Below are positions 26,520-29,513 of a stretch of 64,000 bases of DNA, in pieces. The notes below the pieces were generated by a model, which was not told the origin of the DNA, did no database searches, and worked only from the letters and a program-made list of their open reading frames with translations. The stretch is from Helicobacter sp. 16-1353 (GTDB taxonomy: Bacteria; Campylobacterota; Campylobacteria; Campylobacterales; Helicobacteraceae): assembly GCF_003288815.1 (NCBI RefSeq), contig NZ_NHYM01000001.1, forward strand, positions 124,001 to 188,000, written 5' to 3'. The position numbers and the translations under genes were made by a program. Numbering within the stretch: position 1 is the stretch's first letter; each line of letters begins with the position of its first letter.

Positions 26520-26840
26520 TTAATTTTCCTTATATTCTGTAGCGTTTGATGGGGCGTTTTGCGCCTCATCGTCGGGCTTTTCTTTGATTGTATTCTTTAC
26601 TCCTCTAAATGTTGCTCTTATTGTGATAAATACTCCATAAGCCAAACCTAATGTCATTATGGTAAGCATAATTGCACCTTCTCCAGCTGATGAGCCTGAT
26701 GTGGCTACAGCCGATGAGCCTGATGTGGCTACAGCCGATGAGCCTGATTGCGTTACAAGCGCGTAGATTCCCCCAAGCAACGCTATTCCTACAAAACCTA
26801 TGACAAGTATAAATATAGCTTTTAATAATTTCGCAAACAT
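26520..26840 (-). CDS. Small membrane protein, paralogue of 1196-1474, with tandem SSAVATSG repeat
   Basis: 106 residues. Same start (MFAKLLKAIFIL), two hydrophobic segments and KEKPDDE tail as the paralogue at 1196-1474. The linker holds GSSAVATS twice followed by GSSAG; the paralogue has it once, so a 24-bp unit (GGCTCATCGGCTGTAGCCAC and four more bases) has changed copy number. Eleven bases separate it from the DUF805 pseudogene; the leader is promoter module C. Function unknown. Confidence 0.6.
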   Translation of the reverse strand: MFAKLLKAIFILVIGFVGIALLGGIYALVTQSGSSAVATSGSSAVATSGSSAGEGAIMLTIMTLGLAYGVFITIRATFRGVKNTIKEKPDDEAQNAPSNATEYKEN

Positions 26841-26925: not shown

Positions 26926-26940
26926 ATTTTACCCCCCCCC
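26926..26940 (-). promoter_or_regulatory. Promoter module copy C with G9 tract
   Basis: Reverse strand: ATAAGCAA, nine G (26940-26932), TAAAAT (26931-26926), CGATTTTTTTAAGC, then the leader with AGCGACGCGATAAAT twice (a small duplication) and an AAAGGAG site before the ATG at 26840. Upstream sequence (ATTCAGCAAAGTATAAGCAA) also matches copy B, so homology extends across the whole promoter. Confidence 0.6.
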
Positions 26941-27084
26941 TTGCTTATACTTTGCTGAATCTATTCTTAAAAATGTGGGAATTTGTGAATTTTTGCAGTT
27001 TTTGAGAATCTAAAGTGTGGAATCTGGGGGAATCTAAAGTAAGAATCTAAGCGGAATCCAAAGCAATAATATTTAAATGATGCG

Positions 27085-27331
27085 TTTTATAAAAAGTAAA
27101 ATGAAGCTAAAAGCCGAAGCAACCCCGCTTACTTCGGCAAAAAGATTGTTGTTTAAGGATTTATTAAGCGGAGTTGCCTTAAAATCAAATTGTTTTAATT
27201 TAATAGTGGTTTTGTCTTAGTGTTTCAGCACTAAGACAAGCAATAGTAAAATCAAGCTAAAAGCTATCACTTCACCCATACCACACCTCCTAACTTCACC
27301 GAAGCTCCGTTAGAAGATAATCCCTAAACAA
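27085..27331 (-). ncRNA. Toxin mRNA with 5'-3' long-distance pairing
   Basis: From a start near 27330 the leader TTGTTTAGGGATT (27331-27319) pairs with AATCCTTAAACAA (27161-27149) over 13 bp with one G-U. The 3' part has AAGCGGAGTTGC-type pairing (27166-27177 with 27119-27130) and a 7-bp terminal hairpin GCCGAAG/CTTCGGC (27113-27138) followed by CTTTTAGCTTCATTTTACTTTTT. A folded full-length mRNA that hides the ribosome site, activated by 3' trimming, is the known design of AapA mRNAs in H. pylori; here it is inferred. Confidence 0.55.
27217..27279 (-). CDS. 20-residue hydrophobic peptide, candidate type I toxin
   Basis: An ORF reads MGEVIAFSLILLLLVLVLKH (20 residues), a single hydrophobic helix with a cationic end, like Ibs, TisB or AapA membrane-acting toxins. 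A strong ribosome site (AGGAGGTG) lies 4 bases before the ATG. Its stop codon sits in a perfect 9-bp hairpin (GTCTTAGTG/CACTAAGAC, 27214-27237). The flanks hold the promoter, 5'-3' pairing and terminator described separately. This is a candidate by architecture; no family match is claimed. Confidence 0.6.
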   Translation of the reverse strand: MGEVIAFSLILLLLVLVLKH

Positions 27332-27335
27332 TGCA

Positions 27336-27341
27336 ATTATA
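27336..27341 (-). promoter_or_regulatory. -10 box of the candidate toxin mRNA
   Basis: Reverse strand GTATTATAATTGCATTG contains TATAAT at 27341-27336. The sequence ATTATAAT also gives a -10 box on the forward strand (27338-27343), reading away from the locus. Confidence 0.5.
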
Positions 27342-27345
27342 ATAC

Positions 27346-27545: not shown

Positions 27546-29513
27546 CTAATCACGCCGTATTTTTGCAATCTCATCGCGGATTCTTGCCGCTTCTTCAAAC
27601 TCCAGCTTTTTTGCCGCCTCGTGCATTTTTTTGCTTAATTCTTTAATAATTTTATCCTTTTGGCTTCGCGGGATTTTCCCCAGCTTGGCGGACTTTTGGG
27701 AGCTAGATTCGATTTTTAGCTCATCTTCGATACTTCGCTTTGTATTTACTGGCGTGATATTGTGTTTTTTATTAAACGCCTCTTGCTTATTTCGCCTATA
27801 TTCGCTGATGTCAATTGCCTTTTGCATACTTTTTGTAATCTTTTTAGCGAAAAATATTACCTTGCCGTTGGTGTTCCTAGCTGCCCGCCCCATAGTTTGG
27901 ATTAGGCTGGTTTCACTTCGTAAAAAGCCATCCTTATCAGCGTCCAAAATCGCCACAAGGCTCACCTCTGGCAGGTCCAGCCCCTCACGCAAAAGATTTA
28001 CGCCGATAATCACATCATATTCGCCCAAACGCAGAGAGCGGATTAGGTGATTTCGCTCGATTGCGTCGATGTCGCTATGCATATACTGCGTTTTTAGCCC
28101 TAGCTCGTTGTAGTATTTACACAAATCTTCTGCCATTTTTTTCGTTAGCGTCCCTACAATCGCCCGCTCCCCACGAGCAATGACGATTTTTAGCTCATCA
28201 TAGAGCCGCTCTACTTGCGTTGTGGAATCTAAAACTTCGCATTTCGGGTCTAAAAGCCCAGTCGGGCGGACAATCTGCTCTGCGGTATTCCCCCCACTTA
28301 AATCTAGCTCGATTTTTGCGGGCGTAGCGGAGACAAAGAGATAGTGCGGAGCCTTATTTATAAACTCTTCAAAATTTAGCGGACGATTATCCAGCGCACT
28401 TGGTAGGCGGAATCCATACTCTACTAATACCTCTTTTCTGCTCCTATCACCCGCATACATTCCGCCAAACTGGGGCAGTGAAACATGCGATTCGTCGACA
28501 ATAATTAGATATGGCTTTTGCTTCTGCTCGAAATAATCCAAGAGCGAATATGGCGTCTCTCCGGGGGCTTTTCCGGTCAAATGCCGTGCGTAGTTTTCAA
28601 TGCCCTTGCAGATTCCATTCTCTTTTATCATCTCCAAGTCAAACTCCGTGCGACCTTTGAGCCGTAAATACTCCACTTCCCTTTTGGATTCCTTAAACTC
28701 CGCCAATCTAAAATCTAGCTCGGATTCGATATTTTTAATGGCAGTATTTAGGCGATTATGCCCCACGATAAAGGGATTTGCGGCGTATAACACATAGGAA
28801 TCTAGCCTTTTAATCTCCTTATTATCAATGGCGTCAATAAATGAAATCCGCTCACACTCATCATCGAAAAACTCCACTCTAAGCACCTCGTCCTCGATAT
28901 ACGCTGGGTAGATATCCACCACATCGCCATTCGTGCGGAACTCGCCTCGTTTTAGATATGTGTCGCTCCGTGAATAGCCCATCTCCACGAGCTTTAGCAA
29001 AAAATCCTTGTGTTTTTTTCTATCACCAATCTCGATTTTTTCAATCATTTGGATATATTCAGCTGGATTCCCCAAGCCGTAGTTTGCCGACACGGTGGCA
29101 ATTACAATCACATCATCATACGCCAAAAGCGATGTAGTAGCACTTAGGCGAAGTCGCTCCAAGTCCTCATTAATGCTAGAATCCTTTTCGATAAATAAAT
29201 CTCTGCGTGGGATATACGCCTCCGGCTGGTAATAATCAAAGTGTGAGATGAAATACTCCACATGATTTTTAGGGAAAAAGCCCTTAAACTCGCTGTAAAG
29301 TTGCGCACAAAGGCTCTTATTGTGCGACATAATAAGCGTTGGCATTTGGAGCTTTTGAATGATATTTGCCATCGTGTAGGTCTTTCCGCTGCCTGTAACG
29401 CCAATTAGGGTTTGGTATTTATTGCCAGATTCTAGGCTTTTACTTAGTTTTGCAATCGCCTCCGGCTGGTCGCCTGCGGGTTTAAAAGCGGAATTTAGGG
29501 AAAATTTATTCAT
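27546..29513 (-). CDS. uvrB: Excinuclease ABC subunit B
   Basis: 655 residues. Walker [11 protein letters not shown] (residues 38-47), beta-hairpin YYQPEAYIP, helicase motifs DESH, SATP, RAARN, and the C-terminal UVR domain ([18 protein letters not shown]). UvrB loads damage recognition onto DNA in nucleotide excision repair. Length is normal. No ribosome site conflict at the ATG 29513. It is unlinked to uvrA or uvrC in the window. Confidence 0.97.

What the first reader, a model, noticed from the sequence alone, without database searches (positions are those of the whole stretch)
27060..27345. Candidate type I toxin-antitoxin locus with a 20-residue membrane peptide
A hydrophobic 20-residue ORF behind a strong ribosome site, a -10 promoter, a 13-bp pairing between mRNA 5' and 3' ends, a stable hairpin across the stop codon and a terminal hairpin. 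Known: H. pylori AapA mRNAs use exactly such long-distance pairing with an antisense IsoA RNA. The peptide is unlike AapA as I remember it, so the family may be new. The antisense RNA is inferred; I see only a weak promoter near 27200 on the forward strand.
Basis: partly seen in the sequence, partly recalled or inferred. Interest (0 to 1): 0.8.

Follow-up and report, generated by a model that had tools for sequence, protein, structure and literature searches.

The report
Membrane-peptide gene locked by RNA folding
A tiny gene for a 20-residue membrane peptide, carried on an mRNA whose two ends can pair and probably keep it silent, belongs to a family found in Helicobacter and Campylobacter, including Campylobacter plasmids; it looks like a self-poisoning (type I toxin-antitoxin) gene, although its antidote RNA and its toxicity have not been shown.

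Summary
On the minus strand (27341-27105) lie a TATAAT box, a 13-bp pairing of mRNA ends, a hairpin hiding the Shine-Dalgarno (SD) sequence, a 20-codon ORF, a hairpin across the stop codon and a terminator; the mRNA folds at z = -5.2.

It is not a chance fold. A covariance model from the first ten copies found relatives in other Helicobacteraceae and in Campylobacter; DNA search found copies on 11 Campylobacter plasmids. Most encode 20-22-residue peptides like MxExI...LxL..K. The end-to-end pairing and a second 3' pairing persist while their sequences change (permutation tests 0/20000 each).

[quoted passage not shown] pylori AapA, with an unrelated peptide and different pairing sequences. Antisense RNA and toxicity remain inferred: the window's antisense promoter is no better than chance, and predicted folding does not free its SD after 3' trimming, as it modestly does for AapA.

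Novelty is moderate: the AapA authors reported similar mRNA folds in related species (paper not held), so the family may already be catalogued.

The parts
27336..27341 (-). -10 box TATAAT of the toxin mRNA
   Evidence: Sequence and coordinates; TATAAT in 9 of 10 and TATGAT in 1 of 10 aligned homologues.
27105..27330 (-). Inferred toxin mRNA, about 226-233 nt (start and end inferred from the -10 box and terminator)
   Evidence: Fold of 27098-27330: z = -5.22, 0 of 200 shuffles; model R1 matches the window at 140.2 bits, E 2.6e-22 (the window is one of the ten sequences R1 was built from).
27319..27331 (-). 5' strand of the end-to-end (long-distance) pairing, TTGTTTAGGGATT
   Evidence: own-versus-cross permutation 0 of 20000 over 12 representatives.
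27309..27318 (-). anti-SD arm of the SD hairpin, ATCTTCTAAC
   Evidence: Folds; coordinates; helix 2 (89.8% of cells paired, window plus nine g6 sequences).
27285..27294 (-). SD arm GTTAGGAGGT containing AGGAGG (27286-27291)
   Evidence: predicted unpaired probability 0.01-0.02.
27217..27279 (-). ORF of 20 codons, MGEVIAFSLILLLLVLVLKH, putative type I toxin
   Evidence: one of 36 distinct 20-residue peptides, median dN 0.365, dS 0.974 (the collecting filter required an acidic residue near position 3 and a K near the end).
27212..27239 (-). Hairpin across the stop codon, TTGTCTTAGTG/CACTAAGACAA
   Evidence: helix 2: 11 pairs, 7 with changes on both sides, 89.1% of cells paired over 18 sequences.
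27165..27179 (-). Arm A of a second 3' pairing, AGGCAACTCCGCTTA
   Evidence: 15 bp with 27117-27131, 0 of 400 shuffles; permutation 0 of 20000.
27149..27161 (-). 3' strand of the end-to-end pairing, AATCCTTAAACAA, lying between arms A and A'
27117..27131 (-). Arm A', TAAGCGGGGTTGCTT, overlapping the terminator hairpin
   Evidence: overlap of 15 bases with the terminator.
27113..27138 (-). Terminator hairpin GCCGAAGTAAGCGGGGTTGCTTCGGC followed by a T-rich tail (27112-27091)
   Evidence: 10 pairs; 2 terminator-like sites found in the region against 0.6 expected.
27247..27330 (+). Region where an antisense RNA antitoxin would lie (hypothetical; best antisense -10 candidate TAAAAT 27247-27252, inside the ORF)
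   Evidence: Inference only; candidate reached by 89 of 200 shuffles (place checked).

Best explanation
The locus is the toxin half of a type I toxin-antitoxin module. SHOWN by sequence: a short mRNA encodes a 20-residue membrane peptide; its SD is buried in a hairpin; its 5' end can pair with a sequence near the 3' end; that 3' sequence sits between two further arms (A and A') that can pair, and A' overlaps the terminator. The end pairing, A/A' and the stop-codon hairpin are kept by compensating changes across Helicobacter and Campylobacter; for the SD hairpin this was shown only for the window and its nearest Helicobacter group. INFERRED: the full-length mRNA is a stable, untranslated store. 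Removing or refolding the 3' end (trimming of the terminator may let A' pair with A and displace the 5' leader) frees the leader. The freed leader then serves as a ribosome landing (standby) site, or lets the SD hairpin be opened. In growing cells an unstable antisense RNA from the plus strand, started inside or just behind the ORF, binds this active form and RNase III destroys the duplex. When the antisense RNA is lost (plasmid loss, stress) the peptide is made, inserts in the inner membrane and stops growth. Plasmid copies would act as addiction modules; chromosomal copies are single or clustered, sporadic, and sometimes decayed.
For: Fold and pairings in the window. Homologues by DNA and by model R1, read. 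Covariation: 13 of 43 pairs with changes on both sides against 4.9 +- 1.5 shuffled, 0/500 (10 sequences); 10 of 20 pairs against 4.4 +- 1.2, 0/500 (18 sequences); own-versus-cross complementarity with fixed windows, 12 representatives: end pairing 25.96 versus 17.85, A/A' 24.96 versus 16.47, each 0 of 20000 permutations, while an upstream control window gave 17484 of 20000. Purifying selection on the peptide: dN < dS in 505 of 552 pairs. Mobile and dispensable: copies on 11 of 72,556 plasmid records, all Campylobacter, 8 typed conjugative, one near HicAB and a RelE/ParE-family toxin; tandem copies in one Campylobacter genome; frameshifted copies (L156; L189). The AapA precedent is experimental (PMC6733600, passages).
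Against: No transcript, antisense RNA or toxicity has been seen. Antisense -10 candidates do not beat shuffles in the window (89/200); only 5 of 25 rows scanned reach 15/200 or fewer. In predicted equilibrium folds the window SD stays paired (0.01-0.02 unpaired) after removal of 35-90 nt from the 3' end, and no 3' cut raised SD accessibility by more than 0.07 in any of 14 loci, whereas four AapA loci in the same computation rose from 0.10-0.11 to 0.24-0.38 at their best cut. The SD is already partly open (0.21-0.58) in the full-length folds of 6 of those 14 loci (L167, L170, L171, L174, L226, L213), so a buried SD is not universal. A/A' is weak in 3 of 24 loci (L222 48/400, L169 19/400, L224 20/400). 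The end pairing was unremarkable by the shuffle test in L126 (97/300) and L167 (58/300), and in L169, L171, L172, L187 and L189 the best run was a different pairing. The most divergent members I accept score little or no better with R1 (24-33 bits) than hits I judged spurious (24-26 bits); they rest on layout. The other four genomes of the genus held have no R1 match.
Confidence: 0.8

Rival explanations
1. It is a non-toxic small membrane protein (a subunit or regulator) whose translation is controlled by its folded mRNA, with no antisense partner.
For: No antisense promoter could be supported for the window; no toxicity data; the window peptide matches no named family above cut-off.
Against: Patchy occurrence, several copies in some genomes, a tandem cluster, plasmid copies (one near other toxin-antitoxin genes) and frameshifted copies are unlike a housekeeping subunit; silencing by pairing of mRNA ends is described for hok and aapA mRNAs (PMC6733600, passages).
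Confidence: 0.1
2. [quoted passage not shown]
For: Same order of bacteria; same logic (leader, SD hairpin, end-to-end pairing, short membrane peptide with a basic residue near the C-terminus); mRNA of about 230 nt against 225 nt for aapA3 (PMC6733600, passage). The AapA authors report conserved mRNA folding in related species (same passage).
Against: AapA1 matches at E <= 0.05 occur in 27 of 121 family genomes, in genera g2, g3 and g12 only, none in the window's genome. R1 gives no significant hit in 20 AapA loci: best 19.1 bits away from the fetched ORF, 17.4 bits (E 0.21) over an AapA ORF, against 140-231 bits for the ten sequences it was built from. AapA end pairing is CCCCCATAAGT/ACTTATGGGGG in the 4 loci examined of 20 fetched, against a TTTAAGG-type core here.
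Confidence: 0.15
3. The window copy is a decayed remnant that no longer makes toxin or antitoxin, or survives only as a regulatory RNA, as proposed for NikS/IsoB.
For: One R1 match only in this genome; frameshifted, partial or SD-less copies exist elsewhere (L156, L157, L189, L175); in H. [quoted passage not shown]
Against: -10, leader, SD, ORF, stop hairpin, A/A' and terminator are intact here, with a 13-bp end pairing and 15-bp A/A'.
Confidence: 0.08
4. Chance: a hydrophobic mini-ORF in a hairpin-rich intergenic region.
For: Hydrophobic mini-ORFs are common in A+T-rich DNA (general knowledge).
Against: Fold z -5.2 and dozens of structural homologues with covariation.
Confidence: 0.01

Closest known systems
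AapA/IsoA (Helicobacter pylori type I toxin-antitoxin)
   Same: Chromosomal, often multicopy, small membrane peptide; folded leader; 5'-3' end pairing of an mRNA of about 225 nt; basic residue at or near the C-terminus.
   Different: Peptide of 20 residues (mostly 20-22 in the family, MxExI...K) instead of 30 (AapA1 sequence from PMC10537873, passage); other pairing sequences; in the window the end pairing holds the leader upstream of the SD hairpin, and its 3' strand lies between arms A/A' of which A' overlaps the terminator; antisense RNA not shown. Whether AapA lacks an A/A' is unclear (mixed result).
hok/Sok
   Same: mRNA whose ends pair so that it is not translated until 3' processing (PMC6733600, passages); found on plasmids (recalled).
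   Different: Hok is a longer toxin with a translational coupling frame (recalled). I did not search for Hok relatives or for such a frame here.
TisB/IstR-1 and Ibs/Sib (E. coli)
   Same: Peptides of 19 residues (IbsC, PMC8309996, passages) and 29 residues (TisB, PMC11449926, start of abstract); TisB translation uses a standby site upstream of a sequestered ribosome site (PMC7708055, start of abstract), a possible mode here.
   Different: No match of the window peptide above cut-off in Pfam, NCBIfam or PADLOC. Only the divergent L173 peptide resembles TisB (PF13939 18.7 bits, below the 25-bit cut-off).

Membership tests
Type I toxin-antitoxin system | Short hydrophobic, membrane-spanning peptide encoded by a real gene | tested here: met
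   20 residues, KD 2.15; dN < dS in 505 of the 552 pairs (of 630 possible) with finite dS among 36 distinct peptides collected with a sequence filter. Membrane insertion itself not tested.
Type I toxin-antitoxin system | Toxin mRNA structured so that translation is held back | tested here: met
   SD hairpin and end pairing in the window, with covariation. In silico only; SD partly open in 6 of 14 loci.
Type I toxin-antitoxin system | Antisense RNA antitoxin | tested here: inconclusive
   Antisense -10 candidates not above shuffles in the window (89/200); 5 of 25 rows scanned (L128, L211, L212, L224, L228; one further row, L222, mis-anchored) at 15/200 or fewer. No RNA data available.
Type I toxin-antitoxin system | Toxic when expressed without the antitoxin | not testable with these tools
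   Needs the bench.
AapA/IsoA | AapA peptide homology | tested here: not met
   No match in G000 at E <= 0.05; matches in 27 of 121 genomes, genera g2, g3, g12 (query AapA1 only).
AapA/IsoA | Same RNA family (common model) | tested here: not met
   R1 on 20 AapA loci: 17.4 bits, E 0.21 for the best hit over an AapA ORF. A model built from AapA was not tried.
AapA/IsoA | 5'-3' long-distance interaction in the full-length mRNA | tested here: met
   Met as architecture; sequences differ.
AapA/IsoA | 3' truncation frees the SD | tested here: not met
   Equilibrium folds keep the window SD at 0.01-0.02 unpaired after cuts of 35-90 nt; four AapA loci rise from 0.10-0.11 to 0.24-0.38 at their best cut. 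Computation only, and the control effect is modest.
Named Pfam, NCBIfam, PADLOC, PHROGs or Rfam family | Match above cut-off | tested here: not met
   Window peptide: none above cut-off (one NCBIfam match at 12 bits against a cut-off of 55). RNA: none at gathering score in the window nor in 9 related loci, two of them AapA loci.

The most novel reading that the evidence does not exclude
A so far unnamed toxin family of Campylobacterales (20-residue MxExI...LxL..K peptides) is silenced by a new RNA double lock: the mRNA 5' end pairs with a sequence held between arms A and A', and A' is shared with the terminator, so that 3' trimming flips the terminator into A/A', releases the leader as a ribosome landing site and arms the toxin. 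On conjugative Campylobacter plasmids it acts as an addiction module.
Probability: 0.3. Interest if true: 0.75.

Novelty: new variant of a known kind. Interest (0 to 1): 0.58.

Why it matters
Type I toxins are hard to find by protein search because the peptides are tiny and diverge fast; here an RNA-structure model found relatives across two families of a bacterial order: in Helicobacter genera where the AapA1 search found nothing, in Campylobacter chromosomes, and, by DNA similarity, on Campylobacter plasmids whose listed genes do not include it. If confirmed, it would give Campylobacter and enterohepatic Helicobacter a testable dormancy or plasmid-maintenance system, and would make testable how an mRNA lock that shares bases with its own terminator is opened.

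Tried and rejected
Synteny: downstream of uvrB in three genomes of the same genus (L046-L048; only about 175 bases are held downstream in L048) I saw no such locus. Early weak DNA hits in the same genus (L009, L010, L013 opened) I read as unrelated A+T-rich matches; of the 12 non-self hits, 11 were printed (not L038) and only L034 was real. The resemblance between the terminator tail and the ORF (GCTTTTAGCTTNATTTTACT at 27095 and 27245) suggested a decayed second copy; I judged it unlikely and did not test it further. AapB/IsoB as an identity could not be tested: no aapB sequence was available. Of the 22 family genomes with R1 matches at E <= 1, by my reading 15 hold a member or remnant, 4 are spurious (L176, L177, L178, L180) and 3 were not opened (L179, L181, L182). 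In the order-wide search (19 of 398 genomes) I judged L215-L221 and L177 spurious; L215 (G273) is also one of the 16 of 49 Campylobacter-genus genomes. An own-versus-cross test with windows chosen by the pairing itself was biased and was replaced by fixed windows (there the stop of L169 was set by hand). In some searches the end-pairing strands of this family were given by eye. In one search the L222 row was mis-anchored and should be ignored. A structure prediction was not run: 20 residues are below the tool's range for a single protein.

Full report
WHAT IS THERE. The window is part of a Helicobacteraceae genome (contig C11 of G000; the three nearest uvrB relatives are uncultured Helicobacteraceae, 81-85% identical). 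Between uvrB (27546-29513) and a small ORF at 26520-26840, on the minus strand, lies the reported locus. All its elements check out. The 233-nt stretch folds at -75.8 kcal/mol, 5.2 standard deviations below shuffles. No Rfam family matches at gathering score, and the laxer scan gave only four eukaryotic or viral families far below their cut-offs.

HOMOLOGUES. A DNA search of 121 family genomes gave one real relative among the hits I opened, L034 in Helicobacter apodemus (genome named by exact uvrB words), coding MAEITIVLVVILLLILAIKC. Searching again with it gave copies in genus g6: L126 (the same place as L034), L127, L152, L128, L129, L153, L154 and L130, peptides of 20-21 residues beginning MAE and mostly ending LLLILAVK plus one or two residues, behind a strong SD. 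A frameshifted copy (L156) and a partial one at a contig end (L157) also turned up. In the predicted folds of the ten aligned sequences (window, eight intact, one frameshifted) all show the SD hairpin; nine show the end-to-end pairing and the terminator hairpin, while L126 folds its leader elsewhere and forms A/A' instead.

A covariance model (R1) was built from these ten, using the SD hairpin, stop hairpin and A/A'. In the family it matched 22 of 121 genomes at E <= 1; reading the loci I accept 15, reject 4, and left 3 unopened. Names come, for 9 of the 13 genomes whose uvrB was recovered. The most divergent (L172, L187, L174, L189, L173, L190, L175; 24-33 bits) score little or no better than hits I rejected (24-26 bits) and are accepted on layout. 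In the order, R1 matched 19 of 398 genomes at E <= 0.2; besides Helicobacteraceae the real ones I accept (4 genomes) are in one genus (g36), identified as Campylobacter because one of its contigs is plasmid pPEL1 of C. peloridis. Within that genus 16 of 49 genomes match at E <= 0.05, with up to seven matches per genome; I read family ORFs in 14 of them, one is spurious (G273), and in one (G494) my ORF filter listed nothing. One genome has four ORFs 283-284 bases apart, three coding the same peptide (L259). The Campylobacter peptides are strikingly uniform, for example MSEVIVFIIALIVLILVIKH, MNEIYFLIILLIVLILVIKN and MGEIIAFVVVLIVLILALKS, the last sharing 11 of 20 residues with the window.

PLASMIDS. 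The Campylobacter form (query L211) lies on 11 of 72,556 plasmid records (C. peloridis 2, C. armoricus 1 with four places, C. lari 2, C. coli 5, C. jejuni 1), 8 typed conjugative; under the match the gene table, which is incomplete by the tool's own description, lists nothing or a hypothetical protein (in the two opened records where one is listed, it only overlaps the end of the match on the other strand). Of the five opened, the C. jejuni plasmid pSKBC25 has it near HicAB and a RelE/ParE-family toxin, three others near a recombinase or invertase gene, and the fifth had no annotation in the stretch. The same query found nothing in 50,697 phage records; the window and L127 queries found no plasmid.

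THE RNA IS UNDER SELECTION. On alignment A4 (10 sequences) a 43-pair structure has 94.1% of cells paired and 13 pairs with changes on both sides, against 4.9 +- 1.5 in shuffles (0/500), and more than any slid version; the count of further pair types was reached by 11 of 500 shuffles. On A6 (18 sequences across genera) the end pairing and the stop-codon hairpin have 10 of 20 pairs with double changes against 4.4 +- 1.2 (0/500); there further pair types were not above shuffles (232/500). These shuffles do not keep relatedness, as the tool warns. To avoid dependence on alignment I took 12 representatives (window, two g6 forms of the MAE type, seven more divergent Helicobacter loci, two Campylobacter forms) and asked whether each leader pairs better with its own 3' region than with the others', in fixed windows: mean score 25.96 against 17.85, 0 of 20000 permutations as high; own was the best of its row in 8 of 12. 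A second pairing, arms A and A' flanking the 3' strand of the end pairing, passes the same test (24.96 against 16.47, 0 of 20000; own best in 6 of 12), and a window upstream of the gene does not (15.62 against 16.49; 17484 of 20000). In the window A/A' is 15 bp, reached by 0 of 400 shuffles; over 24 loci it is weak in three. A' overlaps the terminator hairpin in 22 of the 24 (0 bases in L172 and L174, only 2 in L222). Four AapA loci gave mixed results for such a pairing (4, 28, 15 and 0 of 300), so I do not claim it is absent there.

THE PEPTIDE IS UNDER SELECTION. Thirty-six distinct 20-residue ORFs (the window included), collected with a filter for an SD, an acidic residue near position 3, a K near the end and hydrophobicity, show L14 in 34 and L16 in 32, which the filter does not impose, and dN < dS in 505 of 552 pairs with finite dS (630 possible), median 0.365 against 0.974. 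The conserved E3 and K19 are partly imposed by the filter.

HOW IT MAY WORK. The layout is that of a silenced toxin mRNA. In AapA3, whose chromosomal expression is lethal without its antisense RNA, the full-length mRNA is inert because its ends pair; a form lacking the last 35 nt is translated, and the 80-nt IsoA3 binds only that form (PMC6733600, passages). Here the pairing holds the leader just upstream of the SD hairpin. Predicted equilibrium folding does not expose the window SD on 3' truncation, and no cut raised accessibility by more than 0.07 in 14 loci; in the same computation four AapA loci rose from 0.10-0.11 to 0.24-0.38 at their best cut. In 6 of the 14 loci, among them two Campylobacter forms, the SD is already 0.21-0.58 open in the full-length fold. 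I therefore favour release of the leader as a standby site, as described for tisB (PMC7708055, start of abstract), with the terminator-to-A/A' flip as a possible trigger. That is inference. The antisense RNA is also inference: candidate -10 boxes on the antisense strand are not better than shuffles in the window (89/200); the best are in Campylobacter (L211 14, L212 8, L224 7, L228 15 of 200) and L128 (5 of 200), inside the ORF. For comparison, the AapA3 study inactivated IsoA3 through its -10 box.

KNOWN OR NEW. AapA1 matches at E <= 0.05 occur in 27 of 121 family genomes, in genera g2, g3 and g12, not in the window's genome; R1 does not recover them significantly, and their end pairing has another sequence. 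So it works like AapA but is not shown to be AapA. I recall, without having been able to open the paper, that the abstract of Arnion et al. 2017 reports similar systems in many Helicobacter and Campylobacter genomes found by mRNA structure; [quoted passage not shown] The family may therefore be in their database T1TAdb. In the listings of my searches I recognised no paper describing these peptides, but the library is partial and supplements could not be read. Passages seen in PMC6733600, PMC10537873, PMC5385501, PMC3656092, PMC8687705, PMC8322730, PMC8167048, PMC8309996, PMC11264685 and PMC5521070 did not mention them; in PMC11955535 none of five search terms occurred.

Noticed in passing
window 27546-29513: uvrB is 44.1% G+C in a 31.6% G+C window, while uvrB of three same-genus genomes is 31-35% (of five relatives looked at, only Helicobacter sp. 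11S02596-1, L049, is similar at 45.2%): possibly acquired from outside, or drifted composition; the toxin locus lies just downstream of it.
   Followed up: partly
window 26684-26748: A 24-bp tandem repeat (2.7 copies) inside the small ORF 26520-26840 repeats the residues SGSSAVAT.
   Followed up: no
window 26932-26940: A run of nine C residues in the intergenic region downstream of the toxin locus, of the kind that can vary in length.
   Followed up: no
L173 and L190 (genome G097), L265 (genome G479): Loci with a similar layout encode other peptides: MDIFILIIRLLLALLELARAIFELIQFN resembles TisB (PF13939, 18.7 bits, below the 25-bit cut-off), and L265 encodes MGDKILKIIILLLLLARELNKLLS with a possible end pairing. 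The RNA lock may have been combined with different toxins.
   Followed up: partly
L128, upstream of the promoter and downstream of the terminator: A 46-base stretch (aaaacccaaaaatagggcttagacaagaatatttaaagcaagaaat) stands on both sides of the gene, as if the unit had been duplicated or inserted.
   Followed up: partly
L228:3467 (+), C. lari plasmid pCL2100: A second copy, MEKIVIFMITLITLILVIKN, has a different leader and 3' region from the first copy; possibly a partly decayed or differently controlled toxin.
   Followed up: no
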